From positions 1 to 64,000 of the forward strand of contig NZ_VIGW01000014.1 in assembly GCF_007858435.1 (NCBI RefSeq): 64,000 bases of DNA. Reading direction: 5' to 3'. Positions 2,966-63,493 of the stretch are shown one piece after another (position 1 is the first letter of the stretch; each line of letters begins with the position of its first letter). The translations under genes were made by a program, and so were the position numbers. The stretch is from Tsukamurella asaccharolytica. GTDB taxonomy: Bacteria; Actinomycetota; Actinomycetes; Mycobacteriales; Mycobacteriaceae. The notes under the pieces were generated by a model. The model did not search any database and was not told the DNA's origin. It saw only the letters and a program-made list of their open reading frames with translations.

Positions 2966-3715
2966 ATGGACCTCGTACTGATCCTCATCGTCGTCGCCGT
3001 CGTCGCGCTGGTCGTGATGCTGGTGGTCCGCGGGAACCGGAGCCGGTCGACCGCGCTCGCCGACGCTCAGGCCGACGCTCGTGCCACCATCGACCGGCTC
3101 GCGGGCCAGGTCAACAACCTCGTCGGCTCGAACGAGGCGGCGCGCCAGGCCATCGCCGACGCGGGCGAGCGGTACACCGCGGCCGGCTCCCAGGTCGGGA
3201 GTGCGAACACGCCCGCGCAGGCGCGACTCGCCAAGCAGACCGCGCTCGAAGGCCTCTACTACACGCGGGCCGCCCGCGTCGCGATGGACATGGATCCGGG
3301 CCCGCCCATCCCCGAGCTCGACGGCCAGCGCACCGCCGGCTCCGTCACCGAGAACCGGACCGTCGACGTCGACGGTCGCCCGCTCACGGCCTCGCCGTCG
3401 CCCTCCGACCAGACGCCGAACTACTACCCCGGCGGCACGGTGGCCGGGCGCCCGGTGCCCGCCGGCTGGTACAGCGAGCCCTGGTGGAAGCCCGCACTCG
3501 TCGCCGGCGCCTGGGGCGTGGGCAGCTACCTGCTGTTCAGCACGATGTTCGCCGGGATGGCCGGGGTCGGCCCCGCTGTCCTCGCCGATCCGGGGGCCGA
3601 CGGTGCCGCCGACGCCGGTGGCGACGGGGGCTGGGATGGCGGCTCGGACGGCGGGGACTTCGGCGGCGGCGACTTCGGCGGCGGGGACTTCGGCGGGGGC
3701 GACTTCGGCTTCTGA
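2966..3715 (+). CDS. Membrane-anchored protein with Asp/Gly-rich repeat tail, unknown function
   Basis: A 249-residue protein not recognised at family level. Residues 3-22 form a hydrophobic N-terminal anchor, followed by a charged helical region (about 25-110), a short linker, a second hydrophobic stretch (about 173-205, AGAWGVGSYLLFSTMFAG) and a tail built of Gly and Asp with four consecutive GGGDF-type units ending in GDFGF. There is no signal peptidase site. It sits next to TerD-family genes and may belong with them, perhaps through the acidic tail binding Ca2+ or partner proteins, but this is inference from position only. The ATG is supported by a leaderless -10 box. Confidence 0.7.
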   Translation: MDLVLILIVVAVVALVVMLVVRGNRSRSTALADAQADARATIDRLAGQVNNLVGSNEAARQAIADAGERYTAAGSQVGSANTPAQARLAKQTALEGLYYTRAARVAMDMDPGPPIPELDGQRTAGSVTENRTVDVDGRPLTASPSPSDQTPNYYPGGTVAGRPVPAGWYSEPWWKPALVAGAWGVGSYLLFSTMFAGMAGVGPAVLADPGADGAADAGGDGGWDGGSDGGDFGGGDFGGGDFGGGDFGF

Positions 3716-3723
3716 CCCGAGCG

Positions 3724-4920
3724 CTACTTCCGCCCCGGCGTGAAGTTCAGGCCCCAGTTGTAGGCCTCGGCCACGGCGCGCTGCGATCCGTGGATGTACT
3801 GCACCTCGCGCGTCACGGTGAGTTCCCCGTGCACCACGTGCAACTGCGCGATGGCGCAGGAGATGGCGCGCCGGTCCGGGTCGTCGAGCCGCACCTCCAC
3901 CTCGGGCCCGCCGGGCGGGAACAGCGTGACGACACCGTTGGCGGACGCCCAATTCGGCGCACCCTCGTAGATGTAGGCGAAGATGAGGATCCGCACGAAG
4001 TCGTCGAGGTGCGCCAGGTTGATGCGCAGGTTCTCGCCACCCTGCGACTGTCCCGACCGGTCGTCGGCGTCCAGCTGGATGAACGGCGGCCGGTCGATGC
4101 TGCCGAAGGAGTTGCCCAGGGCCTGCACGCCGCCGCGGTCACCGTTGCGGAGCTCGTAGAAGCAGGCCAGGTCGAGGTCCACAGCGTTCCCGCCGCCGAA
4201 GAAGCCTTTCTTACCCTGCGTCCAGTTCAGGTTCACGCGCATCGTGCCGGTCGGCCGCTCGGAGGACTTGGCCAGCGAGACGGTGGGCGCGGACTTCGTC
4301 AGCGTGATCTTCGACAGGTTCACCTGCGGCTCCGTGGGCGCCGTGGGCGCCGGCGCGGCGGGGGGCTGCTGGTGAGCGGGCGGAGCCGGCAGGGGTGCGG
4401 GCGGCGCGACGGCGGGCGGCGCGACGGCGGGCGGCGGACCGTCGACGGTGACGCCGTGTTCGGTCAGCAGGGAGACGAGGCCGCGGTCCCACCCCGCGCT
4501 CACGTTGCGCACCTTCCACGCCCCACCCCGCCGGTAGACCTCGGCGAGCACGGCGGCGCGCTCGGACGTCAGTCCCGTGGCGGGGCAGTCGTCGCCGCCG
4601 ACGCGGGCGCTGAGCCCCGGGATCGACGCGAGCGAGCCGGGGATCTGGTCGTCGAGCGCGACGGCGATCCGGACGGTGCTGATCGCGGCGGGGACCGCGC
4701 TCAACTCGACGGCGAGCGCGTCCGGTCCGGTGAGTCGCACCGCGCCCTCGGGCGACGTGGGACTGTTGAAGAAGACCAGGTCGGCGTCGCTGCGGACGCG
4801 GCCGTCCTCGGTCACTTGGAGGGCGAACAGGTCGACGGATCCGGGGGCGACCCCCGTGATCGAGATCGTGAGAGAGGTCTGGGGCAGGGCCGCGTTCTGA
4901 CCGCGCGCGAGTGTTGTCAC
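3724..4920 (-). CDS. TerD/TerA family protein, two domains
   Basis: A 398-residue protein. Residues 1-160 are a TerD-like beta-sandwich related in sequence to the N-terminal half of the gene at 12550 (ARGQNAALP, VRSDADLVFFN, AEVYRRGGAWKVRNV). A Pro/Ala linker (about 161-205) contains a duplicated APPAV unit. Residues 205-398 resemble TerA (NLNWTQGKKGFFGG, VDLDLACFYEL, DADDRSGQSQGGENL). Such proteins are Ca2+-binding stress proteins linked to tellurite and metal or oxidant response. The GTG at 4920 is chosen because it aligns with the other TerD start; longer in-frame starts upstream add a tail of no family character. Convergent with, and 8 bp from, the membrane protein at 2966. Confidence 0.88.
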   Translation of the reverse strand: MTTLARGQNAALPQTSLTISITGVAPGSVDLFALQVTEDGRVRSDADLVFFNSPTSPEGAVRLTGPDALAVELSAVPAAISTVRIAVALDDQIPGSLASIPGLSARVGGDDCPATGLTSERAAVLAEVYRRGGAWKVRNVSAGWDRGLVSLLTEHGVTVDGPPPAVAPPAVAPPAPLPAPPAHQQPPAAPAPTAPTEPQVNLSKITLTKSAPTVSLAKSSERPTGTMRVNLNWTQGKKGFFGGGNAVDLDLACFYELRNGDRGGVQALGNSFGSIDRPPFIQLDADDRSGQSQGGENLRINLAHLDDFVRILIFAYIYEGAPNWASANGVVTLFPPGGPEVEVRLDDPDRRAISCAIAQLHVVHGELTVTREVQYIHGSQRAVAEAYNWGLNFTPGRK

Positions 4921-5107
4921 GGCCACGATTGTCGCAAGAATCGGGGCGTTCGGCGCGGGACGCCGCGAGACGTGAGTGACACGTCGTTCGGCCGGTTTCC
5001 GGGCGCCTGAACCCTGCGCCGAGCACCCCGCGTCGCGTACTGTGAAACCCGCCACCACGTCACCGGGCGGCGGTGCGCCGTTGCCCATTTTCTCGGGAGG
5101 AAATCAC

Positions 5108-5778: not shown

Positions 5779-6924
5779 GTGTTCCGCATCTTCGGACTGT
5801 CTTTCGTCGTCACGATCGCCGCCCTCGTGGCCGCGTTCCTCTACGGCGGCCCCGAGGCCCTGATCCTCACGATGATCCTCGGCATCCTCGAGGTCAGCCT
5901 CTCTTTCGACAACGCGGTCATCAACGCGACCGTGCTCCAGCGCATGAGCCGGTTCTGGGTGCGCATGTTCCTCACGGTGGGCATCCTGATCGCGGTCTTC
6001 GGCATGCGGCTGGTGTTCCCGCTGGCGATCGTGTGGGTCACCGCCGGCCTGAACCCGGGGCAGGCCCTCGATCTGGCGCTCAACCCGCCGGCCGACGGTG
6101 CCGCCACCTTCCCGGACGGCAGCCCCAGCTACCAGACGCTGATCGAAGCCGCGCACCCGCAGATCGCGGCCTTCGGCGGCATGTTCCTGCTCATGCTGTT
6201 CCTCGACTTCATCTTCGATCCCGAGCGGGAGATCACCTGGCTGAGCTGGATCGAGAAGCCGCTGCAGCGCATCGGCCAGCTCAACCGGTTCTCGATCATC
6301 GTGGCGCTGCTCGCGTTGCTGGCCACCGGCGTCTGGGCGACGCACACCCTCGAGGAGTCGAGGACGGTGTTCATCGCCGGCCTCCTCGGCCTGGTCACCT
6401 ACATCGTGGTCAACGGCCTCGGCGAATTCTTCCACGTCGAGCAGCTCGAAGAAGAGGCGGAGAGCGCCCGGTCGGGCCCGTCGGAGCTGGCGAAGGCCAC
6501 CGGCAAGGCCGGCTTCTTCCTGTTCCTCTACCTCGAGGTGCTCGACGCGTCGTTCTCCTTCGACGGTGTGATCGGCGCGTTCGCCATCACCGCGGACCCG
6601 ATCATCATCGCTCTGGGCCTCGGCTTCATCGGCGCGATGTTCGTCCGCTCGCTCACCGTGTACCTCGTGGAGAAGGGCACGCTCGCCGAGTACGTGTACC
6701 TCGAGCACGGCGCGCACTGGGCGATCGGCGCGCTGGCGGGAATCCTGCTGTTCTCGATCTACACGCCGGTCCCCGAGCTCGTCACCGGCCTCGTGGGCGT
6801 GGTGTTGATCCTCGCGGCGCTCTTCTCGAGCATCGTCCGCAACCGGCGCGAGGGTGACGGCGACGACGCGGCACCGGTCGCGGACGGCCCCACCGCGTCC
6901 AGCTCGCAGACGATCACGTCCTGA
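5779..6924 (+). CDS. DUF475 / TerC-like integral membrane protein
   Basis: A 381-residue polytopic membrane protein made of two related halves. Each half carries the acidic membrane motif typical of TerC/DUF475: EVSLSFDNAV near residue 38 and EVLDASFSFDGVIGA near residue 254. About eight or nine membrane spans are visible, with a soluble Ser/Asp-rich C-terminus. The family is implicated in metal ion (Mn2+) efflux and membrane anchoring of TerD-type proteins. GTG start with GAAAGG upstream. First gene of the long ter operon; only 14 bp separate it from the next gene. Confidence 0.9.
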   Translation: MFRIFGLSFVVTIAALVAAFLYGGPEALILTMILGILEVSLSFDNAVINATVLQRMSRFWVRMFLTVGILIAVFGMRLVFPLAIVWVTAGLNPGQALDLALNPPADGAATFPDGSPSYQTLIEAAHPQIAAFGGMFLLMLFLDFIFDPEREITWLSWIEKPLQRIGQLNRFSIIVALLALLATGVWATHTLEESRTVFIAGLLGLVTYIVVNGLGEFFHVEQLEEEAESARSGPSELAKATGKAGFFLFLYLEVLDASFSFDGVIGAFAITADPIIIALGLGFIGAMFVRSLTVYLVEKGTLAEYVYLEHGAHWAIGALAGILLFSIYTPVPELVTGLVGVVLILAALFSSIVRNRREGDGDDAAPVADGPTASSSQTITS

Positions 6925-6938: not shown

Positions 6939-8138
6939 ATGGCAGCGAATCCGTTCCGCAGACTGTTCGGCGGGGAGCCGGTCGGCTCCCCGCCGGGCCC
7001 GCCTGCGGGCAGCGGCGACGATCGCCTCACCAGCGCATTCCTCGATGCCGACCGCCGGTTCAGCAGTCTCGACGAGGACGTGCGCACGCTGTCGGCGCAG
7101 AACCCGGCCGCGGCCGCGGTGCAGCAGTGGCCCACGATCCGGGACCGCTTCGGCGGCGCCACGGAGCGGTACCTGTGGGCGAGTGGCAGCCAGTCCGGGC
7201 CGCGGCCGCCCACGCCCCAGGATCGGGAAGCCGCGTCCCGCGAGCTGACCGATCTGGTCACGGTGTTGGACCGGTTCCGCGCCGACCACGAGCGGGCGCT
7301 CACCACCGCCCGCGGTGCGCGCGCCAGCTCGGCGGCGCTGGAGCAGGCGGCCCGCGTGGCCGCGGAGCGCGCCACCGACCTGCTCGCGGCACCGGCGACG
7401 GGGCCCTACCTGACGCTGCGGCCCGTCGTCCGGGCGACCGATGCTCTGGTCGAGGCCGTGCGACAGTTGGATACCGCCCCTGACCTCGTCGCGCGGGACG
7501 CGGCCGCGCGGGCGGTGCAGGAGAAGGCCGCGGACCTCACGGCCGCGGTCGAGGCCGCGCCGCGGATGGGCGACGACGCCCGGCGTTCGCTCGCCGCTGC
7601 CGGCACCCGCCTGCAGGCCGTGCGGAACCGCGCCGCCGATCTCGCGGACACCCGGTCGGCACTGCTCCGCGAGTTCAACGCAGCCTGCTCCACCGACCTC
7701 GTCGACAACGACAAGGTCGCCGCACGCGAGTCCGCCGCCGCGGAGGCCGCCCTGTCGGCCGCGGAGCTCCGCCTCCGCGAGGGCACGCCGGACCTCGCCC
7801 TCGAGGGCGTGGCCCTGGCCCGCGACCACCTGGACACCGCCGATGCCGCGGTGAACGCCGTCGGCGAGCGGCTCCGCACTCTCCGCTCCGCCAAGGCCGA
7901 CCCCGACGCGGTGGCCGCGCGCACCCGCTTCGCGCTCCGCGACGCGCAGCTGCTGGCGGTGCAGAAGCAGCAGGTGCACCGCTGGGGCACCGTCCTCGAC
8001 GCGCAGCACGCCCGGATCGAGCGGGCCATCGCCGACCTCCAGCGGGTGCACCCCGACTACTGGCGGTACCTGCAGACCCTCGCCGATGTCGATCGCATGA
8101 TCGCCGACGCCGTGGACCGGATGCGGGGGCGGGCGTGA
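6939..8138 (+). CDS. Unknown all-helical protein of the ter operon
   Basis: A 399-residue protein whose family I do not recognise. After a Gly/Pro-rich N-terminus (residues 1-30) the rest is Ala-, Arg-, Asp- and Glu-rich with continuous heptad-like patterns, so it should be almost entirely alpha-helical, probably a bundle or coiled coil. No membrane segment, signal peptide, cysteine motif or nucleotide-binding loop is visible. The stop overlaps the GTG start of the lyase gene by 3 nt (GTGA), so it is translationally coupled to the enzyme genes. A role as scaffold or adaptor between TerC and the enzymes is plausible but only inferred from position. Confidence 0.8.
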   Translation: MAANPFRRLFGGEPVGSPPGPPAGSGDDRLTSAFLDADRRFSSLDEDVRTLSAQNPAAAAVQQWPTIRDRFGGATERYLWASGSQSGPRPPTPQDREAASRELTDLVTVLDRFRADHERALTTARGARASSAALEQAARVAAERATDLLAAPATGPYLTLRPVVRATDALVEAVRQLDTAPDLVARDAAARAVQEKAADLTAAVEAAPRMGDDARRSLAAAGTRLQAVRNRAADLADTRSALLREFNAACSTDLVDNDKVAARESAAAEAALSAAELRLREGTPDLALEGVALARDHLDTADAAVNAVGERLRTLRSAKADPDAVAARTRFALRDAQLLAVQKQQVHRWGTVLDAQHARIERAIADLQRVHPDYWRYLQTLADVDRMIADAVDRMRGRA

Positions 8139-9301
8139 GCGGCTCCCTGCACCACTTCCATCAGCTGCCGGAGGAGGTGCGCACACGCCTGTTCCACCGG
8201 CCGCCGCAGCCCTTCGACCGGAGCACGCCGCGCCCGGTCCTCGCGTACGCCCTCGGCGCCACCCTGTACATGCCCGCCACCCGCGCGGATCTCGCCTCGA
8301 CCATCCGCCGCCGCCGCGACGAGGGTGTGCTCTCGATGGTCGCCGACCTCGAGGACGCCGTGGCCGACGATGCCGTCCACCACGCCGTCGACGCCGTCGC
8401 CGCCGCGCTGACCGAGCTCGCCGACGACGCGGATCCGTTGCCGCTGCTCTTCATCCGGCCGCGCACCACCGCCGACACCGTCGCGCTGCTGGACCGGCTG
8501 GGCGACGGTGCCCGCGCCCTCACCGGCGTCGTCCTGCCGAAGTTCACCGCCGCGGACGGCGGTGCGGCGCTCGACGCCCTCGCGGATCGTGCCTCGTCGC
8601 ATCCCCTCTACGCGATGCCCGTGCTCGAGTCCGCTGAGATCGTCTACCGCGAGACGCGCGACGAGCAGTTGGCGAGCATCGCCGAGGTACTGCGCGCGCA
8701 CCGGGATCGCGTGCTGGCGGTGCGGATCGGCGCGACGGACATGTCGGCGCTGTTCGGTATCCGCCGCGACCGCGACCTCACGATCTACGACGTGCACGTC
8801 GTGGCGGAGACGATCTCGGCGATCGTGAACCGCCTCGCGCGGTCGGACGGCACCGGCTACGTGGTCACCGGGCCGGTGTGGGAGTACTTCGCCGATCACG
8901 AGCGCATGTTCCGACCCCTGCTGCGCGCCACCCCCTTCGAGCGCAACCACGCCGCCCGGTTCCGCGAGCAACTCGTCGGCCGCGACCTCGACGGGCTGCT
9001 GCGGGAGACGGCGCTGGACCGGGCGAACGGCCTGCACGGCAAGTCCGTGATCCACCCGTCACACGTGGCGGCGGTGCACGCCCTGTCGGCAGTGACGCAC
9101 GAGGAGTACGAGGACGCCCTTGCGATCGTAGGCGCCGACGCCGGCGGCGTCGAGGCCTCCAGCTACCGGAACAAGATGAACGAGATGAAGCCGCATCGCA
9201 ATTGGGCGCGGCAGGTATTGATCCGCGCGGACGTCTTCGGAGTGACCCGGCCCGACGTGGGCTTCGTCGACGTGCTGACCGCGCTGGTGGAGGGCCGGTG
9301 A
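8135..9301 (+). CDS. HpcH/HpaI aldolase / citrate lyase-like protein (ter-associated)
   Basis: A 388-residue TIM-barrel protein of the CitE/HpcH class. Visible landmarks are LYMPATR (about residue 46), the metal-site motif DLEDAV (about 72), VRIGATDMSALFG and GKSVIHPSHV. These enzymes cleave or form C-C bonds of acyl or keto acid substrates using Mg2+. In ter operons this family is one of the enzymes proposed to make a nucleoside-like metabolite (Ter systems analysis by Anantharaman, Iyer and Aravind). Translationally coupled at both ends: GTGA overlap with the helical protein and TGATG overlap with the PRTase. Its actual substrate is unknown. Confidence 0.9.
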   Translation: MSGSLHHFHQLPEEVRTRLFHRPPQPFDRSTPRPVLAYALGATLYMPATRADLASTIRRRRDEGVLSMVADLEDAVADDAVHHAVDAVAAALTELADDADPLPLLFIRPRTTADTVALLDRLGDGARALTGVVLPKFTAADGGAALDALADRASSHPLYAMPVLESAEIVYRETRDEQLASIAEVLRAHRDRVLAVRIGATDMSALFGIRRDRDLTIYDVHVVAETISAIVNRLARSDGTGYVVTGPVWEYFADHERMFRPLLRATPFERNHAARFREQLVGRDLDGLLRETALDRANGLHGKSVIHPSHVAAVHALSAVTHEEYEDALAIVGADAGGVEASSYRNKMNEMKPHRNWARQVLIRADVFGVTRPDVGFVDVLTALVEGR

Positions 9302-10584
9302 TGACGCCGACGACCACAGGGCCCTGCGCGCAGGCGCCGGAGCCTGCGACGCCCGGGAAGCTGTGCGCGGAGCTCGGCATGCACGTGCGCGGCGACGCCG
9401 AGCTCCTCGAGCTCATCGTGCCGGGGCTGCGCCGCAATCCGCGGCGCGCGCACCTGCTGGTGTCGACGGTGCTCGGCAAGCACATTCCCGCCGACCCGGC
9501 GGCGGTGCGGGCGGCGGCCGACCGCCTCGCGGACCTCGTGGCGGAGCGCCTGGACGGGCCCTGCGTCGTCTTCGGTTTCGCCGAGACCGCGACCGGCCTG
9601 GGGCACTGCGTCGCCGCGCGGCTGCACGCCGCGGTCTACCTGCAGTCCACCCGCCGCCCGGGCGCAGTCGTGCACGGCGAGTTCACCGAGGGGCATTCGC
9701 ACGCCACTGCGCACCTGCTGCAGCCCACCTCGCCGGACCTGCTGTCCGCCGCCGACACCCTGGTCCTCGTCGACGACGAGATCTCCACGGGTGCCACCGC
9801 ACTCGACTCCATCCGCGCGCTGCACGGCCTCGCGCCGCACCGCCGCTACGTCGTCGCGTCGCTGGTCGACGTGCGGTCACCGGCGCACGTCGCGGAGGGC
9901 GAGCGCGCCGCCGCGGCAGCCGGACTCGACGTCGACTTCGTGGCCCTGGCGCACGGCACCGTCGATCTGCCCGACGGCCTGCCGGCCCGCGTGGCGGAAC
10001 TGCCGGCGACCCCGTCGAACCCGCGGGCCCCGCGCCCCGGCACGGTGCGCGAGCTCCGCGCGACCTGGCCGCAGGACGTGCCCGACGGGGGCCGGCACGG
10101 CGTGCTCGCAGCGGATCAGCCGCGGCTGGAGGCGGCTGCCGCCGCGGTCGCGGCGGCGATCGCCCCCGGCCTCGACGACCGACCCGTGATCGTCGTGGGC
10201 CACGAGGAACTGATGTACCTGCCGCTGTGCATAGCGGAGGCATTGGCACGCAGCGGATTCCGCGTGCGCTTCCAGACCACGACGCGTTCCCCCGCGCTGG
10301 TGCGCGACGAGCCGGGCTATCCGCTGCGTCGCGGCTTCGAGTTCCTCTCCCCCGAGCCCGACGAGGAGGCGCCCCGCCGGCACCTCTACAACGCCGCGTG
10401 GCCGGCCGAGGACGCCCGGATCGTCTTCGTCGCGGATTCCCCCGCCGACACCGACCGGCTGCGCGCACCGGGCGGGCTGCTCGACGTGCTCGCCGCCGCG
10501 GGCCACGACGTGCTCGCCGTCATCGTGCCGGCGTCCGACCAGGGCGACCTCGCCTCGGCCCGTCGCGGGGCGAGGGCGCGATGA
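9301..10584 (+). CDS. Phosphoribosyltransferase with C-terminal TRSP domain
   Basis: A 427-residue protein. The first half is a type I PRTase fold with the PRPP loop VLVDDEISTGATAL near residue 157 and an upstream FAETATGLG motif. The C-terminal half carries the TRSP domain named for its conserved motif, visible as TTTRSPAL near residue 328, with VGHEELMYLP before it. Both domains occur together in ter metabolite operons, where a PRPP-dependent step is predicted. The ATG overlaps the stop of the lyase gene; an in-frame GTG one codon earlier is an alternative. Confidence 0.92.
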   Translation: MTPTTTGPCAQAPEPATPGKLCAELGMHVRGDAELLELIVPGLRRNPRRAHLLVSTVLGKHIPADPAAVRAAADRLADLVAERLDGPCVVFGFAETATGLGHCVAARLHAAVYLQSTRRPGAVVHGEFTEGHSHATAHLLQPTSPDLLSAADTLVLVDDEISTGATALDSIRALHGLAPHRRYVVASLVDVRSPAHVAEGERAAAAAGLDVDFVALAHGTVDLPDGLPARVAELPATPSNPRAPRPGTVRELRATWPQDVPDGGRHGVLAADQPRLEAAAAAVAAAIAPGLDDRPVIVVGHEELMYLPLCIAEALARSGFRVRFQTTTRSPALVRDEPGYPLRRGFEFLSPEPDEEAPRRHLYNAAWPAEDARIVFVADSPADTDRLRAPGGLLDVLAAAGHDVLAVIVPASDQGDLASARRGARAR

Positions 10585-11705: not shown

Positions 11706-12553
11706 ACGCCTTCGTCACCAGCGATCTCGACCGCACCCTCATCTACTCGCAGGCCGCCTCCGGGCCTGCGTTCGCCACCGCCGACCCGGTGTGCGTGGAG
11801 ATCTACCGCGACGCGCCCCTGTCCTTCATGGCACCCGCGTCCATCGACGCGCTGGCCGCGCTCAGCGCCGCGACACCGGTCGTGCCCACCACCACCCGCA
11901 CCCCCGACCAGTACCTGCGGGTGCGGCTACCGGGGGGCCCGCACCGGTTCGCGATCTGCTCCAACGGGGGCGAGATCCTCGTCGACGGTGCGCCGGACCC
12001 GCAGTGGCAGGCGCACATCCGCGCCCTCCTCGGGGCTGTGCCCGCGGACCTCGACACGGTCGCGGCGCAGCTGGAATCCCGGCTCGACCCCGCGTGGGGC
12101 GCCCGCCTGCGGCTGGTGCCGGGGCTGTTCGCCTACGTCGTCTCCGACGTCCGGATCCCCGCCGAAGTGGTTGCCGAGTGGCGCGCGTACTGCGCCCCGC
12201 TGGGTTGGACGATCTCGCAGCAGGGACGCAAGCTCTACACGATCCCCGAGCCGGTGACCAAGTCCCGTGCGGCCCTGGAGGTCCGGCGACGCCTCGAGGC
12301 CACCGGCGCCCTCGACCCGCGCGCGCCCTGGCTCGCCGCCGGCGACGGCGCCCTCGACGCCGATCTGCTCGCGGCGGCCGACGCCGCGATCCGCCCGCGG
12401 CACGGCGAGCTCGAGGAACTGGGTTTCGCCCTGCCGCACCTCACGCTCACCGCCGGTAGCGGCATCGCCGCCGGCGTCGAGATCGTCCGCTGGCTCGCCG
12501 ACCGCGCCACCGCCGCCGCTCCCGTCCCCGACCCGATCAAGGAGATCCGATGA
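11702..12553 (+). CDS. HAD family hydrolase (ter-associated)
   Basis: A 283-residue HAD phosphatase. Motif I is SDLDRTLI (nucleophile Asp8 and Asp10), motif II is PTTTRTPDQY near residue 62, and the motif IV region is AAGDGALDADLL near residue 218. The cap arrangement resembles the sucrose-phosphatase/Cof class. In ter operons this enzyme is expected to remove a phosphate from the pathway's nucleotide-like intermediate. GTG start overlapping the StiP stop (GTGA) and ATGA overlap with the downstream TerD gene show tight translational coupling. Confidence 0.9.
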   Translation: MNAFVTSDLDRTLIYSQAASGPAFATADPVCVEIYRDAPLSFMAPASIDALAALSAATPVVPTTTRTPDQYLRVRLPGGPHRFAICSNGGEILVDGAPDPQWQAHIRALLGAVPADLDTVAAQLESRLDPAWGARLRLVPGLFAYVVSDVRIPAEVVAEWRAYCAPLGWTISQQGRKLYTIPEPVTKSRAALEVRRRLEATGALDPRAPWLAAGDGALDADLLAAADAAIRPRHGELEELGFALPHLTLTAGSGIAAGVEIVRWLADRATAAAPVPDPIKEIR

Positions 12554-13911
12554 CCGCACTGTCCAAGGGCCAGAACGGGCCGCTGCCCGCCGGCCCCGTC
12601 ACCGTCACCGTCGACTCGCCGGCGCCCGTCGACGTCTCCGCCCTGCTCGTGACCGACACCGGGAAGGTACGCTCCGACGCCGATTTCGTCTTCTTCAACC
12701 AGCCCACCGGGCCCGGGGTGAGCCTGACGAACGGGGCCTTGCGCATCGACGGTGCGGCCGTGCCCGCCGACATCGCCCAGGTGCGCGTCGCGATCACCCT
12801 TGACGACGCCTCGGCCTCCTTCGGGCGGTTCAGTGCTCCGGTGGCCCGCGTCGCCGGCAGCACCGGCGCCCCGCTGTACGAGTACCCGATCGACGGCCTC
12901 AGCAGCGAGTCGGTGGTGATCGCGGTGGAGATCTACCGGCGCGGCGCCGACTGGAAGGTCCGCGCCGTGGGCCAGGGCTACGCGGGCGGCTTCGCCGACC
13001 TGGTGCGCGATCACGGCGTCAGCGTCGACGACGCCCCCGCACCGCCCCCGGCCGCCCCCGCCCCCGCACCCGCACCCGCACCCGCACCCGCACCCGCACA
13101 GAATCCGCCGCCCGCACCGTCGGGGCAGCCGATCGACTACTTCGCGAGCGGGACGGCACCGTCGGCCGCGGCGGGCAGCGCGCCGATCGACTACTTCAAC
13201 ACCCCCGCGCCGCAGCAGGCCCCGCAGCCGCCGGCGCAGCCGACGCCGGCGGCGCAGCAGCCCTTCACCCCCACTGCGCAGCTCGCCGGTCAGCAGCAGG
13301 CCGCCGGGACGGGCGAGGTCAGCCTCACGAAGAACAAGCGGGTCGACCTCACCAAGGGCCAGAAGGTGGTGCTGCGCAAGGACGGCGGTGTCCAGCTGAC
13401 GCAGATCGCCATGGGCCTCGGTTGGGATCCGGTGCGTAAGCAGGGCTTCTTCGGCTCGAAGGCCAAGGACATCGACCTCGACGCCTCGGTCGTGCTCTTC
13501 GCGGGGCAGCAGCCCGTGGACGTGGTCTACTACGGCCAGCTGCAGTCGAAGGACGGCTCGATCCGGCACCAGGGCGACAACCTCACCGGCGCGGGCGACG
13601 GCGACGACGAGGTGGTGAACGTGAACCTGCCGGCCGTGGCACCGCAGGTCACCTCCCTGGTGTTCATCGTGAGCTCGTACCAGGGGCAGCGCTTCGACCA
13701 GGTCGACAACGCCTACACCCGGCTCGTGGACTCGACCACGGGCGTCGAACTGGCGCGGTTCGCGCTGGCGGGCGGCATGCCCTACACCGGGATCGTCATG
13801 TGCACCATCGCCCGCCAGGGCGGGGAGTGGAAGCTGCAGGCGATCGGCGAGTGCATCAACGCCAAGACGCCGCGGGACGCGATCCCGCAGCTCGCGCCCT
13901 TCCTCGGCTGA
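12550..13911 (+). CDS. Two-domain TerD family protein
   Basis: A 453-residue protein. Residues 1-165 are a TerD-like domain that resembles the N-terminal half of the protein at 3724 and lacks the full Ca2+ signature. A long Pro/Ala/Gln linker (about 165-255) includes six AlaPro dipeptides from a DNA hexamer repeat and two copies of PIDYF. Residues 255-453 are a canonical TerD domain with DIDLDAS and GDNLTGAGDGDDE. The linker suggests two tethered modules that can bind different partners. Last gene of the operon; the stop lies just before a strong hairpin. Confidence 0.92.
   Translation: MTALSKGQNGPLPAGPVTVTVDSPAPVDVSALLVTDTGKVRSDADFVFFNQPTGPGVSLTNGALRIDGAAVPADIAQVRVAITLDDASASFGRFSAPVARVAGSTGAPLYEYPIDGLSSESVVIAVEIYRRGADWKVRAVGQGYAGGFADLVRDHGVSVDDAPAPPPAAPAPAPAPAPAPAPAQNPPPAPSGQPIDYFASGTAPSAAAGSAPIDYFNTPAPQQAPQPPAQPTPAAQQPFTPTAQLAGQQQAAGTGEVSLTKNKRVDLTKGQKVVLRKDGGVQLTQIAMGLGWDPVRKQGFFGSKAKDIDLDASVVLFAGQQPVDVVYYGQLQSKDGSIRHQGDNLTGAGDGDDEVVNVNLPAVAPQVTSLVFIVSSYQGQRFDQVDNAYTRLVDSTTGVELARFALAGGMPYTGIVMCTIARQGGEWKLQAIGECINAKTPRDAIPQLAPFLG
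13063..13098 (+). repeat. Tandem hexamer repeat, six CCCGCA units
   Basis: Six perfect CCCGCA units encode Pro-Ala repeats in the linker of the two-domain TerD. Hexamer slippage would change linker length without breaking the frame. Confidence 0.85.
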
Positions 13912-13917
13912 GCGGCC

Positions 13918-13958
13918 CGTGTCGGACGGTGCCGACTGAGCGGGCACCGTCCGACACG
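13918..13958. terminator. Bidirectional hairpin terminator between ter operon and OPT gene
   Basis: A 16-bp perfect stem, CGTGTCGGACGGTGCC (13918-13933) against 13943-13958, with a 9-nt loop between two convergent genes. Both arms contain the genome's iterated octamer GACGGTGC. Confidence 0.8.
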
Positions 13959-13975
13959 GATCGGGAGCGCAGCGG

Positions 13976-19144: not shown

Positions 19145-19165
19145 TCCCACGGTTCCTCCGGTCGA

Positions 19166-19201
19166 CGGTGCCGAGCACGCCTGCGGGCGCGCTCGGCACC
19201 G
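19166..19201. terminator. Hairpin terminator after phoX
   Basis: CGGTGCCGAGC (19166-19176) pairs with 19191-19201 across a 14-nt GC-rich loop, 21 bp after the phoX stop. The left arm overlaps one copy of the iterated octamer. Confidence 0.7.
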
Positions 19202-24789: not shown

Positions 24790-27639
<2,850 letters not shown>

Positions 27640-50284: not shown

Positions 50285-50353
50285 CGGTTCGCGGAACCCC
50301 GCGCCCGGAGCGGGGGAGCGGCACCGTCGGTGCCTGAGCGGCGCCGTGCGGCG

Positions 50354-55783: not shown

Positions 55784-57022
55784 TCAGCGTTTGCGCTTCC
55801 GGTTCCGGTTGCGGTTGCGCTGCTGCTGGTTGCGCTGCTGCTGGCGGGCGTTGGCAGCAGGGTGCTGGGGCTTCGGCTTGGCGCCGGGGGTGGGCTTCGA
55901 CGGTGCCTTCGCCGCTGTCGTCTCCTCGGCGTCGCCGGCCTTGGTGTCCTCGGCCTTGCTCTCGTCGGCCTTACTGTCCACAGCCTTACTGTCCACGGCC
56001 GTGCTGTCGGCGGCCTTGGCCAGGGACGTCGCCGCGCCGCGCCGCTTGGGCTTCACGCCCGGCTTGGGGGCGTTCTCCGCGCGCTTCTCCTGGGCGAGGC
56101 GCTTCTTCTCCTCGTCCTCCTTATCGAGCTTGCCGAAGACGATGTGCTGCTGGAAGTACGTCCAGATGTTCTGGGTGACCCAGTAGATCAGGATGGCGAC
56201 GGGCAGGAAGAAGCCACCGACCAGCACGCCGATGGGGAACACCCACAGCATGAGGCGGTTCATGATCGCCGTCTGCGGGTTGTCCAGCGAGGCGACGGGC
56301 TGGCGCGCGATAGAGGCACGCGAGTTGAAGTGCGTCGCCAGCGCCGCGATGATCATCAGCGGCAGCGACAGGGCAACGATCCACCACTTCTCGAAGTTCG
56401 GCTCGATGTAGGCGATCACACCGTTCGCGTCCGGCGGGCTCACCGGCATGAAGGCCTGGAACTGCGCGACGGGTTCCTGGACGTACGAGGAGAGCGGTAC
56501 CCCGAACAGGCGCGCGTCGAGGAAGCTTTCGACGTCGGTGGCGGAGAAGAAGTAGTTCGCAGTATGGCGCGTCTCGTAGGCACTCATGTCCGGCGAACCG
56601 AACAACTGCGTAGCACCGCCACTCATCCGGTTGAACGAGCGGAGGACGTGGAACAGGCCGATGAAGACGGGTACCTGGAGGAGCGCCGGGAGGCAGCCGA
56701 GGAGCGGGTTGAAGCCGTGCTCCTTCTGCAGCTTCTGCATCTCCAGGGCCAGCTTCTGCCGGTCCTTGCCGTACTTCTTCCGCAGTGCCTGCATCTGCGG
56801 CTGGAATTCCTGCATCTGCCTGGTCGTCTTGATCTGCCGGACGAAGGGCCTGTACAGGATGGCGCGCAACGTGAGCACCAGGAAGATCACGGAGAGGGCC
56901 CACGTGATCCCGCTGTCGGGGCTGAGGCCGGGCACGAAGGAGAAGACCTTGTGCCAGACCCACATGATGCCCGACACCGGGTAGTACACGTAGTCCAAGG
57001 ACAACGGATTGAAACTTGACAC
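55784..57022 (-). CDS. yidC: Membrane protein insertase YidC
   Basis: A 412-residue YidC/Oxa1 insertase. Five membrane spans are visible, with the conserved cytosolic loop ([17 protein letters not shown] near residue 84) and [19 protein letters not shown] near residue 108. The C-terminus, from about 275, is a long basic tail with repeated Asp-Ser-Lys-Ala units ([20 protein letters not shown]) and ends in an Arg/Asn/Gln-rich stretch that could contact ribosomes. GTG start at 57022. Two near-consensus DnaA boxes (CTGTCCACA at 55974 and CTGTCCACG nearby) lie within the tail-coding DNA. Confidence 0.96.
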
Positions 57023-58638: not shown

Positions 58639-60132
58639 ATGACCGTTGATCCGCTGTTAGAGACGTGGACCGCCGTGGTCGACGAACTCTGCGGAGACAA
58701 CACCGATCGCACCCTCACCAAGCAGGAGAAGGCCTGGCTGAGGCTGGTCCAGCCGCTGACCCTCACCGAGGGCTTCGCCCTCGTCGCCGTGCCCTCCCAG
58801 CTGATGAAGGACGCGATCGACCGCAGCCTGCGCGAGCCGCTCGTCGCGGCGCTCACCAGCCGCTTGGGGCAGGACGTGGAACTGGGTGTGCGCATCTCGC
58901 CCGACGCCACGCCTCCGCTCATCGCCGACGAACCCGTGAGCGTCGCGCCCGTGGAGGGCCCGTCGGGTCCGAGTACTGCGGACCTGACCGTCCCCGTCAG
59001 TGAGATCGCGGCCGGCATGCCGGGCGCACCGTCACCGTCGGTGCAACTGCCCCCGCCCATGACCGGCCCGGCCGGCAGCGGCCCGGCGATGACCGGATCG
59101 TCGGGCTCGAGCCTCAACCAGAAGTACACCTTCGAGACCTTCGTGATCGGCGCCTCGAACCGCTTCGCGCACGCCGCGGCCTTCGCCGTGGCGGAGGCGC
59201 CGGCCCGCGCCTACAACCCGCTCTTCATCTGGGGCGAGTCCGGACTCGGCAAAACCCATCTTCTGCACGCCGCGGGTCACTACGCGCGTCGCCTGTTCCC
59301 CGGGATGCGCGTGAAGTACGTGTCGACCGAGGAGTTCACGAACGACTTCATCAACTCCCTCAAGGACGACCGGCAGGTCCAGTTCAAACAGCGCTATCGC
59401 GACGTGGACATCCTGCTGGTCGACGACATCCAGTTCCTCGAGGGGAAGCTGGGCATCCAGGAGGAGTTCTTCCACACCTTCAACACGCTGCACAACGCGA
59501 ACAAGCAGATCGTGATCTCCTCCGACCGCCCTCCGAAGCAGCTGGCGACGCTGGAGGACCGACTGCGCACGCGGTTCGAGTGGGGCCTCATCACCGACGT
59601 CCAGCCGCCCGAGCTGGAGATCCGTATGGCGATCCTGCTGAAGAAGGCGCAGATGGAGCGGATCCACGTGCCGCCGGACGTGCTCGAGCTCATCGCCACC
59701 CGCATCGACCGCAACATCCGCGAGTTGGAGGGCGCGCTGATCCGCGTGACCGCGTTCGCCTCGCTCACGCAGACGGACGTGACCTACGAGCTCGCCGAGA
59801 TGGTGCTACGCGATCTCGTGCCGGACACCACCACCATCGAGATCTCCTCCAGCACCATCCTTTCCGTGGTGGCGGAGTACTTCGAGATCTCGGTCGCCGA
59901 TCTCAAGGGCACCGAACGCGCGCGGGCCGTGACGCACGCGCGGCAGATCGCCATGTACCTGTGCCGCGAATTGACTGAGCTGTCGCTGCCGAAGATCGGC
60001 CAGATCTTCGACCGCGACCACACCACGGTCATGTACGCCGAGCGGAAGATCCGCAAGGAGATGCCCGAGCGGCGCCGGGTCTACGACCAGGTGCAGGAGC
60101 TCACGACCCGCATCAAGCGCCGGAGTCAGTAG
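58639..60132 (+). CDS. dnaA: Chromosomal replication initiator DnaA
   Basis: A 497-residue initiator. Domain I starts [13 protein letters not shown], a Pro/Gly/Ser-rich domain II spans about residues 90-155, and the AAA+ domain III has Walker [12 protein letters not shown] (about 204) and DDIQFLEGK. Domain IV carries the DnaA signature [16 protein letters not shown] near residue 457 for box binding. The ATG at 58639 is chosen since GGAGG lies eight bases before it and the N-terminus then aligns with other DnaA proteins; frames starting at 58501 or 58576 would add non-family residues. Confidence 0.97.
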
Positions 60133-60159: not shown

Positions 60160-60957
60160 TCAGCGGCCCGCCGAGCAGATCAGCGGCCCACCGCTGCCCG
60201 CGCTGCTGCGCTCTTCCGAGACGACCCTCCCGTTGCGCGTGATCGTGCAGCCCACGTCGCCCGTGTAGCCGAGCACCGTCACCGTGACCAGCGGCGCATC
60301 CGAGGTGAACGCCTTGGACCACGGGAGCGGTTGCGTGCCGAAGAGTCCGGTGTCGGGGACGCCGACGGTGACCAGCTGCGCCGACCCGCTGCCGGTCACC
60401 TCCACGCGCCACTGCCGGGCGTCCGCGCCCGTGCTGGAACCGCCGCCGAAGATCGGCGGGATCGAGATGCCCGACGGGACGCCGCTGGGCAGGGTGATGC
60501 CGCCCGGCCTGCTGGTGGTCGTAGTCGTCGTCGTCGGGGGAGCGGTCGTGGTGGTCTGCGAGGACGCGGTGCTCTCCGGAGGACCACTGGTCGCCACCAG
60601 CGCCACGATCACGGCGAAGACGAGCACGAAGCCGACCGCCGCCGCCGCGATCCACAGCAGCTTCCGATTGCCGCCGGAACCGCCGTCGCCACCGGAGCCA
60701 CCGCCCGGGCCGCCCGGGCCCGGGGGAGGGCCCTGCGGCGGCTGTGCGCCGTACTGATCGCCGTAGGCACCCGGCGCGTAGCCGAGCTGATAGCCACCGT
60801 CGTAGGCCTGCGTGGGCGGGTCCTGCGGGCCCGGCCCCGCGGGGCGCTCGTATTCCCGCGTCGGTTTCGGCACGTTCTGCGCGTCGGGGCCGACGGGGTA
60901 GTTCTGGCCGCCGGGGTGCTCGCCGGGGCGCTCTGGATCCGGATATCCCATGGTCAC
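60160..60957 (-). CDS. MmpS-like membrane protein between dnaA and oriC
   Basis: A 265-residue protein. A Pro/Gly/Tyr-rich cytosolic tail (1-95) leads to one membrane span (about 100-122, LLWIAAAAVGFVLVFAVIVALV), a Thr-rich linker with seven consecutive Thr, and an extracytoplasmic domain (about 180-265) that resembles MmpS: RQWRVEVTGSGSAQLVTV, LPWSKAF, GCTITRNGRVVSEERSS. MmpS proteins assist MmpL lipid or siderophore exporters in mycobacteria; no mmpL is nearby. Start GTG 60957, or ATG 60951 two codons later. It is convergent with dnaA and separates it from the oriC boxes. Confidence 0.78.
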   Translation of the reverse strand: MTMGYPDPERPGEHPGGQNYPVGPDAQNVPKPTREYERPAGPGPQDPPTQAYDGGYQLGYAPGAYGDQYGAQPPQGPPPGPGGPGGGSGGDGGSGGNRKLLWIAAAAVGFVLVFAVIVALVATSGPPESTASSQTTTTAPPTTTTTTTSRPGGITLPSGVPSGISIPPIFGGGSSTGADARQWRVEVTGSGSAQLVTVGVPDTGLFGTQPLPWSKAFTSDAPLVTVTVLGYTGDVGCTITRNGRVVSEERSSAGSGGPLICSAGR

Positions 60958-61407: not shown

Positions 61408-62571
61408 ATGAAGTTTCGCGTCCCGCACGAGGAGTTCGCCGAATCCGTCGCGTGGGTGGCGCGCAGCCTGCCGTCACGCCCGCCGGTGCCGGTGCTCGGC
61501 GGCGTCCTGCTCACCGCGGGTGACGACGGCCTGACCGTCTCGGGCTTCGACTACGAGGTCTCCGCCCAGGTGCGCGTCGGCGCCGAGGTCGCCGACGAGG
61601 GCCAGGCCCTGGTCTCCGGCCGCCTGCTCGCGGACATCACGAAGGCGCTGCCGAACAAGCCCGTCGACGTGCAACTCGACACGACACGCGTCGCGATCAC
61701 CTGCGGCAGTGCGAAGTTCTCGCTGCCCACGATGCCCGTCGAGGATTACCCGCAGCTGCCCGAGCTGCCCCAGCAGACCGGGTCCATCGAGCGCGGCACC
61801 TTCGCCGAGGCCATCGCGCAGGTCGCGATCGCCGCCGGCAAGGATGACACTCTGCCGATGCTCACCGGCATCCGCGTCGAGATCGAGGGCGAGAAGGTCG
61901 TACTCGCCGCGACCGACCGGTTCCGGCTCGCGGTCCGCGAGTTCGACTGGCAGCCCGCCTCCTCCGACGTCAAGGCCGCGGTTCTCGTGCCGGCGAAGAC
62001 CCTCTCCGAGGCGGCGAAAACCTTCGCCGTGGATCCCGAGGTCGGGATCGCGCTCGGAGCGGGCTCCGCGGTGGGCGCCGACGGACTGCTCGGCGTGGTC
62101 GGCGCGGACCGTCGCACCACCACACGACTCCTGGACGCGGACTTCCCGAAGTTCCGCCAGCTGCTCCCCGCCTCGCACACGGCCCTCGCCACGATGGAGA
62201 TCGCGCCGCTGCTCGAGGCCATCAAGCGCGTGGCCCTCGTCGCCGATCGCGGCGCGCAGGTCCGGATGGAGTTCGCCGACGGTTCGCTGCGGCTCTCGGC
62301 GGGCGGCGACGACGCCGGTAAGGCCGAGGAGGAGTTGCCCGCGGATTTCCAGGGCGAGGCGCTCACCATCGCCTTCAACCCGGGCTACCTGCAGGACGGC
62401 CTGGCCGCCATCCACACGGAGTCGGTGACCTTCGGATTCACCACGCCCAGTCGGCCTGCGGTGCTGCGGCCGGCGGTGCAGAATGGCTACGAGCCGGACG
62501 ACTCCGGCGGGTTCCCCGCGCCGCAGAGCCCGTACACGTACCTGCTCATGCCGGTGCGCCTGCCCGGCTGA
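61408..62571 (+). CDS. dnaN: DNA polymerase III beta subunit (sliding clamp)
   Basis: A 387-residue clamp that tethers the replicative polymerase. The three clamp folds are visible as repeats of similar beta-rich segments, starting [20 protein letters not shown] and ending in the conserved [12 protein letters not shown]. Typical actinobacterial length. It begins directly after oriC; gnd follows 37 bp later. Confidence 0.97.
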
Positions 62572-62608
62572 TCGAACCGTCGTCTCCGCACGGAAGGGTG
62601 CCGCGAAC

Positions 62609-63493
62609 ATGCAGTTGGGTCTGATCGGTCTGGGCAAGATGGGCGCGAACATGCGCCAGCGGATCCGCAACGCCGGCCACGAGGTGATCGGCTACGACCC
62701 CCGTCCCGAGGTCACCGACGTGCCGTCGCTGGAGGCGCTCGCGCAGGCGCTGACCGCGCCGCGCACCGTCTGGGTCATGGTTCCCGCCGGCGACATCACC
62801 CGCGAGACCGTGCGCAAGCTCGCCGATATCCTCGAGCCCGGTGACCTGGTGATCGACGGCGGCAACTCCCGCTACACCGACGACCAGGTGAATGCGGATC
62901 TGCTGTCCGCCAAGGAGATCGGCTACCTCGACTGCGGCGTCTCCGGCGGCGTCTGGGGCCTCGAGAACGGTTACGGCCTCATGGTCGGCGGGTCGAACGC
63001 CGACGTCGAGCGGGCCATGCCGATCTTCGACGCCCTGCGCCCGGAGGGCGACCGCGAGGACGGCTTCGCGCACAGCGGCCCCGTCGGCGCCGGGCACTAC
63101 GCGAAGATGATCCACAACGGCATCGAGTACGGCCTCATGCAGGCCTACGGGGAGGGCTACGACCTGCTCGAGGCGGAACCCCTGATCGAGAACGTGACGG
63201 GTACGCTGCGGGCCTGGAGCAAGGGCACCGTCGTGCGGTCCTGGCTGCTGGACCTCCTGGTCAAGGCGCTCGAGGAGGATCCCGGCCTGCACGAGATCAC
63301 CGGCTACACCGAGGATTCGGGTGAGGGACGGTGGACCGTCGAGGAGGCCATCCGGCATTCGGTGCCCGCGCCGGTCATCGCCGCGGCGCTGTTCGCCCGA
63401 TTCCAGTCGCGGCAGGACGATTCGGACACCATGAAGGCGGTCTCCGCGCTGCGGAACCAGTTCGGCGGGCACGCCGTGCGGCGCGCGGACTAA
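62609..63493 (+). CDS. gnd: 6-phosphogluconate dehydrogenase, short (decarboxylating) type
   Basis: A 294-residue enzyme of the short, YqeC-type gnd class, usually NAD-dependent, that oxidises 6-phosphogluconate to ribulose 5-phosphate and CO2. The cofactor motif is [12 protein letters not shown] (residues 4-15), the substrate motif [10 protein letters not shown] near residue 84, and the catalytic [20 protein letters not shown] near residue 157. Its place between dnaN and recF is conserved in Rhodococcus, Nocardia and Gordonia relatives, whereas M. tuberculosis has recF directly after dnaN. Confidence 0.95.

What the first reader, a model, noticed from the sequence alone, without database searches (positions are those of the whole stretch)
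3599..63232. Iterated octamer GACGGTGC / GCACCGTC, about nine times over expectation
By eye I count about 48 copies on the two strands: GACGGTGC at 3599, 4672, 6094, 8504, 9465, 11984, 12748, 13925, 19164, 21243, 21956, 28286, 32184, 35048, 35850, 45546, 45566, 47432, 55899; GCACCGTC at 7987, 9956, 13114, 13156, 13944, 16764, 17354, 20060, 20426, 22540, 22626, 23262, 24842, 26060, 27482, 28073, 31160, 32052, 34003, 34523, 34897, 37347, 38888, 40671, 50321, 59026, 60273, 62763, 63225. At 70% GC about five are expected. The motif often extends to CGACGGTGCC, lies in all frames, and forces GCA and GGT codons that high-GC genes usually avoid, so protein sequence alone does not explain it. It also builds terminator stems (13918, 19166). 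It may be an uptake-type, nucleoid-binding or recombination signal, or a selected repeat like HIP1 of cyanobacteria.
Basis: partly seen in the sequence, partly recalled or inferred. Interest (0 to 1): 0.72.

Follow-up and report, generated by a model that had tools for sequence, protein, structure and literature searches.

The report
Genus-wide iterated DNA word in Tsukamurella
Bacteria of the genus Tsukamurella carry thousands of copies of one short DNA word, kept in place even where it forces unusual codons, which suggests that some protein reads it directly on the DNA; which protein, and why, is not yet known.

Summary
The count is right: 51 exact copies of GACGGTGC/GCACCGTC, all 48 listed places correct, three missed. 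The window belongs to a Tsukamurella genome with 2,940 copies in 4.12 Mb. The unit is best described as the 9-mer CGACGGTGC. With protein sequence and each gene's codon use held fixed, it is 5.1- to 5.8-fold over expectation and the top nine-mer by z-score in three genomes sampled. It is in excess between genes too (8-mer 49 against 10.8) and is kept between species: rare codon GCA in 18 of 21 motif sites but 87 of 441 elsewhere. Fourteen Tsukamurella genomes have the high density; two deep-branching ones have less. None of 476 genomes of other genera reaches it; the nearest, G217, is explained by codon use. I found no replication-strand bias, regular spacing, core-gene preference or shared C5 or N6/N4 methyltransferase. 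One Tsukamurella phage lineage is enriched, another is not. It is a real word maintained at DNA level. My leading mechanism is a Chi-like signal for DNA-end processing, with an uptake signal close behind.

The parts
3599..3606 (+). motif copy, frame GAC-GGT-GC
4672..4679 (+). motif copy, antisense, frame GC-ACC-GTC
6094..6101 (+). motif copy, frame GAC-GGT-GC
7987..7994 (-). motif copy, antisense, frame GC-ACC-GTC
8504..8511 (+). motif copy, frame GAC-GGT-GC
9465..9472 (+). motif copy, frame G-ACG-GTG-C
9956..9963 (-). motif copy, antisense, frame GC-ACC-GTC
11984..11991 (+). motif copy, frame GAC-GGT-GC
12748..12755 (+). motif copy, frame GAC-GGT-GC
13114..13121 (-). motif copy, antisense, frame GCA-CCG-TC
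13156..13163 (-). motif copy, antisense, frame GCA-CCG-TC
13925..13932 (+). motif copy between genes, left arm of hairpin
13944..13951 (-). motif copy between genes, right arm of hairpin
13910..13975 (.). hairpin between convergent genes built from two inverted motif copies; terminator-like on both strands
   Evidence: fold -41.7 and -40.4 kcal/mol, z -4.9
16764..16771 (-). motif copy, antisense, frame GC-ACC-GTC
17354..17361 (-). motif copy, antisense, frame GCA-CCG-TC
19164..19171 (+). motif copy between genes, stem of hairpin
19145..19215 (+). hairpin downstream of the PhoX-like gene, one arm holding a motif copy
   Evidence: fold -39.7 kcal/mol, z -5.2
20060..20067 (-). motif copy, antisense, frame GC-ACC-GTC
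20426..20433 (-). motif copy, antisense, frame GC-ACC-GTC; intact in 13 of 14 core Tsukamurella genomes
21243..21250 (+). motif copy, frame GAC-GGT-GC
21956..21963 (+). motif copy, antisense, frame GC-ACC-GTC
22540..22547 (-). motif copy, frame G-ACG-GTG-C
22626..22633 (-). motif copy, frame GAC-GGT-GC
23262..23269 (-). motif copy, antisense, frame GC-ACC-GTC
24842..24849 (-). motif copy, frame GAC-GGT-GC (leucyl-tRNA synthetase gene)
26060..26067 (-). motif copy, frame GAC-GGT-GC; intact in all 14 core Tsukamurella genomes, in neither deep-branch one
27482..27489 (-). motif copy, frame GAC-GGT-GC
28073..28080 (-). motif copy, antisense, frame GCA-CCG-TC; intact in all 14 core Tsukamurella genomes, in neither deep-branch one
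28286..28293 (+). motif copy, frame GAC-GGT-GC
31160..31167 (-). motif copy, antisense, frame GCA-CCG-TC
32052..32059 (-). motif copy, antisense, frame GCA-CCG-TC
32184..32191 (+). motif copy, frame GAC-GGT-GC
34003..34010 (-). motif copy, antisense, frame GCA-CCG-TC
34523..34530 (-). motif copy, antisense, frame GC-ACC-GTC
34897..34904 (-). motif copy, antisense, frame GC-ACC-GTC
35048..35055 (+). motif copy, frame G-ACG-GTG-C
35850..35857 (+). motif copy, frame GAC-GGT-GC
37347..37354 (-). motif copy, antisense, frame GC-ACC-GTC
38888..38895 (-). motif copy, antisense, frame GCA-CCG-TC
40671..40678 (-). motif copy, antisense, frame GC-ACC-GTC
45546..45553 (+). motif copy, antisense, frame GCA-CCG-TC
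45566..45573 (+). motif copy, antisense, frame GC-ACC-GTC
47432..47439 (+). motif copy in a doubtful ORF (46959-47576, which overlaps a tRNA gene)
50321..50328 (-). motif copy between genes
55899..55906 (+). motif copy, antisense, frame GCA-CCG-TC
59026..59033 (-). motif copy, antisense, frame GCA-CCG-TC (gene taken as dnaA)
60273..60280 (-). motif copy, frame G-ACG-GTG-C
62763..62770 (-). motif copy, antisense, frame GC-ACC-GTC
63225..63232 (-). motif copy, antisense, frame GC-ACC-GTC

Best explanation
Shown: CGACGGTGC is a 9-bp, non-palindromic word that accumulated genome-wide in Tsukamurella and is held at individual sites by a force acting on the DNA sequence, whatever the reading frame, strand or gene. 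Inferred: a protein that travels along or scans double-stranded DNA reads it, and each copy carries a small benefit. The most likely reader is the DNA-end-processing and recombination machinery (AdnAB or RecBCD type), so that the word would work like a Chi site, telling the enzyme to stop degrading and start recombination. Because copies point both ways equally, it would serve ends coming from either side rather than broken replication forks alone. My probability that the word is maintained at DNA level is about 0.9. For the Chi-like role it is about 0.35, the figure given below.
For: DNA level: 590 coding copies against 169.5 under synonymous shuffling, ratio above 1 in all six frames (one frame has a single copy against 0.4), 20-fold in the rare GCA-CCG-TC frame. 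Between genes 49 against 10.8 at second-order Markov. CGACGGTGC is the top 9-mer by z-score of 16,671 in G000 (428 against 78.9), of 23,909 in G086 (453 against 78.3) and of 13,136 in G148 (222 against 43.4). Specificity: 5.6-fold for the word, 0.5- to 3.1-fold for its 27 single-base variants. Maintenance: GGT kept in 38 of 55 (G086) and 36 of 51 (G148) motif sites against 128 of 656 and 128 of 613 elsewhere; GCA 18 of 21 and 18 of 22 against 87 of 441 and 79 of 418; retention of GGT, GCA and ACG falls with mismatches to the motif. Chi-like: the excess is of the order of E. coli Chi under the same null (53 against 18.7, 2.8-fold, rank 4 of 8,117). RecC (PF04257) is in 16 of 16 Tsukamurella genomes. 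Genes absent from both compared congeners are as enriched as shared ones, and phage TPA2 is enriched (17 against 4.0), as expected if the word matters for any DNA in the cell. [quoted passage not shown]
Against: No strand bias: 361 leading against 328 lagging in 41 stretches of G086, p 0.22 (origin placed from dnaA/dnaN, terminus assumed opposite), while the E. coli Chi sample shows 38 against 18 (all five pieces lie on one replichore by recalled map positions). Phages TIN2, TIN3 and TIN4 are not enriched. The plasmid excess is mostly in one chromosome-like gene cluster (32 of 41 coding 9-mers; rest 9 against 2.55). RecC is also in 7 of 9 family genomes of other genera in the same search, so its presence does not explain the genus limit. 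AdnAB itself was not searched for. No protein has been linked to the word.
Confidence: 0.35

Rival explanations
1. A DNA uptake sequence: a competence receptor binds the word, kin DNA is taken up preferentially, and recombination spreads the word by molecular drive.
For: Non-palindromic 9-mer, 2,136 copies in 4.12 Mb, both strands equally, conserved at orthologous sites, genus-limited, occasional use in terminator-like hairpins. ComEC (PF03772) is present in 28 of 28 genomes searched, 8 of them Tsukamurella.
Against: ComEC was found in all 20 genomes of other genera too, so it does not single out the genus. Genes absent from both congeners are as enriched (6.3-fold) as shared ones (4.9-fold), whereas DUS accumulates in the core genome (PMC3630211, passage). 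Phage TPA2 is enriched. The excess is modest: about 5.6-fold against 0.5 to 3.1-fold for one-mismatch forms, while a drop of 82 to 92-fold from the exact word to one mismatch is given for Neisseria and Haemophilus (PMC1939737, passage; a base-composition null, so not directly comparable). No paper in the library holds both 'Tsukamurella' and 'natural transformation'.
Confidence: 0.25
2. A binding site for a genus-specific nucleoid or chromosome-organising protein, spread over the genome.
For: Genome-wide, strand-neutral, inside genes and between them, at all positions in genes.
Against: Spacing is close to random (CV 1.07), no helical phasing, no clear ori-ter pattern (Spearman -0.27, p 0.085); a non-palindromic 9-mer is unusual for dimeric binders (general knowledge).
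Confidence: 0.15
3. A HIP1-like by-product of DNA methylation and repair, in which a solitary methyltransferase that reads the word biases mutation or repair.
For: Iterated, unexplained, DNA-level word like HIP1. A mismatch-repair model is offered for HIP-type sequences in PMC4390886, which however calls selection the simplest explanation for HIP1 itself (passages).
Against: C5 methyltransferase (PF00145) was not found in G000 and G070; N6/N4 methyltransferase (PF01555) was found in 4 of 20 genomes and not in G070, which is among the densest. The 36 majority-inferred single-step gains come from many kinds of base change, not from one.
Confidence: 0.12
4. Context-dependent mutation plus codon-pair preference, without any reader.
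For: Overlapping and neighbouring words share part of the excess, and relatives show a weak excess of the same 9-mer (Mycobacterium 2.1-fold, Rhodococcus group 2.3-fold). The strictest shuffle removes part of it (2.0-fold left). In the commonest frame (GC-ACC-GTC) extra retention is weak, and not significant in G148.
Against: Both strands, all frames and intergenic DNA are affected; rare codons GGT and GCA are held mainly when all eight bases match; single-base changes inside the word remove most of the excess, although the two end bases are looser.
Confidence: 0.08

Closest known systems
Chi (crossover hotspot instigator) sites of RecBCD/AddAB bacteria
   Same: Short non-palindromic word with many copies, mostly inside genes, excess of the same order under the same codon-preserving null; RecC present.
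   Different: No leading-strand bias (361 to 328); stronger enrichment (5.1- to 5.8-fold for the 9-mer, 3.5- to 3.9-fold for the 8-mer, against 2.8-fold); no enzyme tested.
DNA uptake sequences (DUS of Neisseriaceae, USS of Pasteurellaceae)
   Same: 9-bp core, both strands, thousands of copies, lineage-specific, conserved at orthologous sites, sometimes a terminator-like stem.
   Different: No preference for core genes, present in a phage, weaker excess than published for DUS/USS (other null), no report of competence in the genus found.
HIP1 (GCGATCGC) of cyanobacteria
   Same: Highly iterated octamer-class word without known reader, apparently maintained at DNA level.
   Different: Not a palindrome, other phylum, no shared C5 or N6/N4 methyltransferase.
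KOPS and other architecture-imparting octamers
   Same: Octamer-class words spread over a chromosome.
   Different: These are strand-biased by definition (recalled); this word is not.

Membership tests
Chi site | over-represented non-palindromic word beyond codon use | tested here: met
   Chi control
Chi site | preferred orientation on the leading strand | tested here: not met
   361 leading, 328 lagging, p 0.22; E. coli Chi sample 38 to 18
Chi site | cognate helicase-nuclease in the genome | tested here: met
   RecC family PF04257 in 16 of 16 Tsukamurella genomes, in G152 as two pieces and in G151 at a contig end; necessary, not sufficient; AdnAB not searched
Chi site | changes the activity of that enzyme and raises recombination nearby | not testable with these tools
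   needs biochemistry
DNA uptake sequence | thousands of copies, both strands, single dominant word | tested here: met
DNA uptake sequence | concentrated in core rather than accessory genes | tested here: not met
   4.9-fold in 239 shared genes, 6.3-fold in 86 genes absent from both congeners, 5.4-fold in 47 mixed ones
DNA uptake sequence | frequent inverted pairs as terminators | tested here: inconclusive
   30 inverted against 25 direct pairs within 30 bases among 1,606 neighbours; 37.3 expected in all
DNA uptake sequence | word-dependent uptake of DNA | not testable with these tools
   ComEC present, but in every genome searched
HIP1-type iterated palindrome | palindrome | tested here: not met
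   CGACGGTGC is not its own reverse complement
HIP1-type iterated palindrome | solitary methyltransferase acting inside the word | tested here: inconclusive
   PF00145 in 14 of 16 and PF01555 in 4 of 16 Tsukamurella genomes, neither in G070; other families not searched, no methylome
KOPS / architecture-imparting sequence | strong strand asymmetry between replichores | tested here: not met

The most novel reading that the evidence does not exclude
The Tsukamurella lineage evolved its own sequence-recognition system for DNA: a 9-bp, unpolarised word read on all resident DNA, phage DNA included. It would be a fourth class beside Chi, uptake sequences and HIP1, and the first genome-wide iterated recognition word in actinomycetes that I know of (searches listed none).
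Probability: 0.3. Interest if true: 0.82.

Novelty: new variant of a known kind. Interest (0 to 1): 0.62.

Why it matters
Few genome-wide iterated words are known (recalled), and they either led to a piece of cell machinery (recombination control, DNA uptake) or remain a long-standing puzzle (HIP1). Here one genus has such a word, strong enough to hold rare codons in place, while its relatives do not, so the responsible gene can be sought by comparison. If it is an uptake receptor, it would be the first sequence-specific DNA uptake in the phylum that I know of.

Tried and rejected
Codon use and protein sequence as the cause: rejected. Codon-pair use: it lowers the excess to 2.0-fold in the strictest shuffle but does not remove it.

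An independent second lineage: G217 (1.7 Mb, 812 copies) looked similar by raw count. Under the codon-preserving null, on 200 kb of it, the 8-mer is only 1.8-fold and 163rd of 5,497 words, so it is ordinary codon use.

Plasmid as clean evidence: pTpau01 first gave 5.9-fold (37 against 6.3); splitting it, with genes called afresh, showed most copies in a GC-rich NRPS cluster (32 against 5.5), the rest 9 against 2.55. I treat the plasmid as weak evidence. Two control plasmids (50 kb each) gave 1 against 0.9 and 2 against 1.9.

Terminator or inverted-pair role as the general function: not supported. Helical phasing: none. RNA families: no Rfam match in the window at gathering scores. ComEC presence: not informative. 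Paper searches: 'GACGGTGC' gave 867 papers, of which the 20 listed are unrelated by title and abstract start; 'Tsukamurella' with 'overrepresented' and 'motif' gave 3, unrelated by title; 'Tsukamurella' with 'natural transformation' gave none. I therefore say only that I found no report in these searches of one open-access library. Papers were seen as passages, one as abstract and outline, the rest as listings.

Limits: genes were called by my own script, not by an annotation; the codon-preserving null was run on samples (850 kb of G000, 800 kb of G086, 400 kb of G148, 200 kb each of G153 and G217, and 50 of the 80 named loci), not on whole genomes; G154 was not put through it; the two orthologous comparisons share one genome and are not independent; sizes of G-handle genomes other than G000 are rounded; the phage p-value is not corrected for the 14 replicons examined; phages other than TPA2 were read in part (24 to 50 kb).

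Full report
WHAT IS THERE. The window holds 51 exact copies of GACGGTGC or its complement, 21 and 30 by strand; every one of the 48 listed positions is right and three were missed. The window is contig C5:1-64000 of genome G000 (4,120,944 bases, 81 contigs), which has 1,454 + 1,486 = 2,940 copies against 97 + 108 of the reversed word. The window's leucyl-tRNA synthetase is 92% identical to that of Tsukamurella pseudospumae, the highest identity among the 80 loci kept (near-identical records may be left out there), so I take the genus as Tsukamurella. The window contains what I take to be the chromosome origin region: genes read as parB/parA, dnaA and dnaN (my reading of order and protein starts, not checked by family search; the stretches called dnaA and dnaN have 92 and 94% identical DNA side by side in G086).

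IS IT MORE THAN CHANCE. I called genes with my own script in 850,063 bases of G000 (749 genes, 87% coding). In this sample GACGGTGC occurs 640 times against 128 and 177 expected from second- and third-order Markov models. In genes it occurs 590 times. Shuffling synonymous codons within each gene, which keeps the protein and the gene's codon use, gives 169.5. Keeping also the dinucleotides at codon junctions gives 200.6. Keeping two neighbouring bases on each side gives 299.8, still z 20. The ratio is above 1 in all six frames, although one of them has a single copy against 0.4 expected; it is largest (71 against 3.5) in the frame that needs the rare codon GCA. Between genes there are 49 against 10.8. 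Scanning all words under the synonymous null, CGACGGTGC has the highest z-score of 16,671 nine-mers (428 against 78.9); a few rarer words, one of them overlapping the motif, have a higher or equal ratio. The same word is first in G086 (453 against 78.3, of 23,909) and in G148 (222 against 43.4, of 13,136). Pooled over the three genomes the word is 5.6-fold in excess (1,103 against 198) while its 27 single-base variants are 0.5- to 3.1-fold, the end positions being the loosest; a preceding T at -2 or C at -1 raises the ratio further.

WHO HAS IT. Fourteen Tsukamurella genomes carry about 606 to 1,058 copies of the 8-mer per Mb; two deep-branching members of the genus (G153, G154; synthetase 82% identical) carry about 402 and 282 (densities are my division by mostly rounded sizes). 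The 141 genomes of 30 other genera of the family reach at most about 357 per Mb. The phylum sample of 346 genomes adds 335 more; the highest is G217 with about 478 per Mb. Together that is 476 genomes outside Tsukamurella. I tested 200 kb of G217 under the codon-preserving null: 1.8-fold, 163rd of 5,497 words, hence ordinary codon use; the other outsiders were not tested one by one. A second index avoids gene calling: the ratio of CGACGGTGC to the one-base variant CGACGGCGC is 1.9 to 3.6 in the five Tsukamurella genomes among 91 family genomes. It is at most 1.14 in the other genomes that have at least 100 copies; one small genome with 52 copies (G004) has 1.4 (ratios worked out by hand). In G153 the word is second of 4,471 nine-mers (49 against 16.1), so it is present there but weaker. 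Fifty of the 80 named loci, pooled as Gordonia, Mycobacterium, Corynebacterium, Dietzia, the Rhodococcus group and Pseudonocardiales, show 1.1- to 2.3-fold. The signal therefore grew within or on the stem of Tsukamurella.

IS IT MAINTAINED. I aligned 420 kb of G000 with orthologous DNA of G086 and G148 (286,110 and 271,384 aligned bases, 88.9 and 88.3% identical). Motif copies are intact in 158 of 233 and 134 of 224 cases, against 0.43 and 0.42 for 8-mers in general. The sharper test uses rare codons with the amino acid unchanged. GGT is kept in 38 of 55 and 36 of 51 motif sites but in 128 of 656 and 128 of 613 other sites; GCA in 18 of 21 and 18 of 22 against 87 of 441 and 79 of 418. Retention falls stepwise with mismatches to the motif (0.69, 0.33, 0.17, 0.16 for GGT in G086). 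The commonest frame, GC-ACC-GTC, shows the weakest effect: 77 of 84 against 618 of 771 for two-mismatch contexts in G086, and no significant difference in G148 (72 of 82 against 597 of 729, p 0.22). Across 14 core genomes around the synthetase gene, sites come and go, but 26060 and 28073 are intact in all 14 and in neither deep-branching genome. Among three genomes, one-step changes inferred by majority are 36 gains and 67 losses, from many base-change types; counting all patterns, 67 columns have one intact copy with two one-mismatch copies and 67 have two intact with one one-mismatch copy, so gain and loss are of the same order.

HOW IT IS LAID OUT. Gaps between copies are near-exponential (mean 1,273, CV 1.07) and successive orientations look random. 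Position within genes does not depart from uniform (KS p 0.13), there is no helical phasing and no replication-strand bias (361 to 328 in 41 stretches of G086). A mild fall in density away from the origin is not significant (p 0.085). Two hairpins in the window use the word as stem, but close inverted pairs are only a little commoner than direct ones (30 against 25).

WHAT READS IT. Four clues. First, the excess is as strong in 86 genes absent from both compared congeners (6.3-fold) as in 239 shared genes (4.9-fold); 47 genes in between give 5.4-fold. Second, phage TPA2 of Tsukamurella is enriched (17 against 4.0, p 1.3e-6), while seven phages of Gordonia and Mycobacterium are at 0.8- to 2.5-fold (the highest, Thonko, 5 against 2.0); but phages TIN2, TIN3 and TIN4, a single lineage, are not enriched (3, 2 and 2 against 1.2 to 1.3). 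Plasmid pTpau01 is enriched mainly in one chromosome-like cluster. Third, there is no common methyltransferase of the C5 family (not found in G000 and G070) or the N6/N4 family (found in 4 of 20 genomes). Fourth, RecC is present in all 16 Tsukamurella genomes and ComEC in 28 of 28 genomes searched, neither limited to the genus. As a yardstick, E. coli Chi in 250 kb gives 53 against 18.7 under the same null (rank 4 of 8,117) with 38 to 18 strand counts; my gene caller covered only 70% there.

JUDGEMENT. That the word is maintained at DNA level is well supported. The mechanism is open. I lean to a Chi-like role in DNA-end processing, because the excess is of Chi's order and affects accessory genes and one phage lineage; the missing strand bias is the main point against it. 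An uptake sequence is the closest rival, weakened by accessory genes, the phage and the modest excess. The literature I could see says that mycobacteria have no reported uptake sequence (PMC10526031, passage) and that Chi regulation of AdnAB was unknown in 2016 (PMC4824097, passage).

Noticed in passing
window 51086-63999: Gene order and protein starts look like the chromosome origin region (parB, parA, yidC, rnpA, dnaA, dnaN, recF by my reading); motif copies are sparser here (6 in the last 16.5 kb), perhaps by chance.
   Followed up: partly
window 46959-47576: A called ORF on the + strand overlaps tRNA-Arg(CCT) at 46978-47053 on the - strand, so the ORF is doubtful.
   Followed up: no
L049 (CAJCHX010000775.1): A contig labelled Acidobacteriaceae bacterium BOG_194 carries a leucyl-tRNA synthetase 82% identical to the Tsukamurella one and has the same length (9,780) as contig C775 of G154; the label is probably wrong.
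   Followed up: partly
L260 about 18.9-46.7 kb (pTpau01 68.9-96.7 kb): The NRPS/salicylate gene cluster on the T. paurometabola plasmid has about 75% GC over most of its length and chromosome-like motif density, unlike the rest of the plasmid; it may have come from the chromosome.
   Followed up: partly
G217, G366, G180 (phylum sample): Small (1.7 Mb) genomes of one genus have a high raw count of GACGGTGC for their size; in G217, the only one tested, other words such as CGAGCAGC and CGGCGAGC are the strongest under the codon-preserving null.
   Followed up: partly
850 kb sample of G000: Runs of seven C or G are almost absent from genes (4 against 212 under the synonymous null), a strong avoidance beyond codon use.
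   Followed up: no
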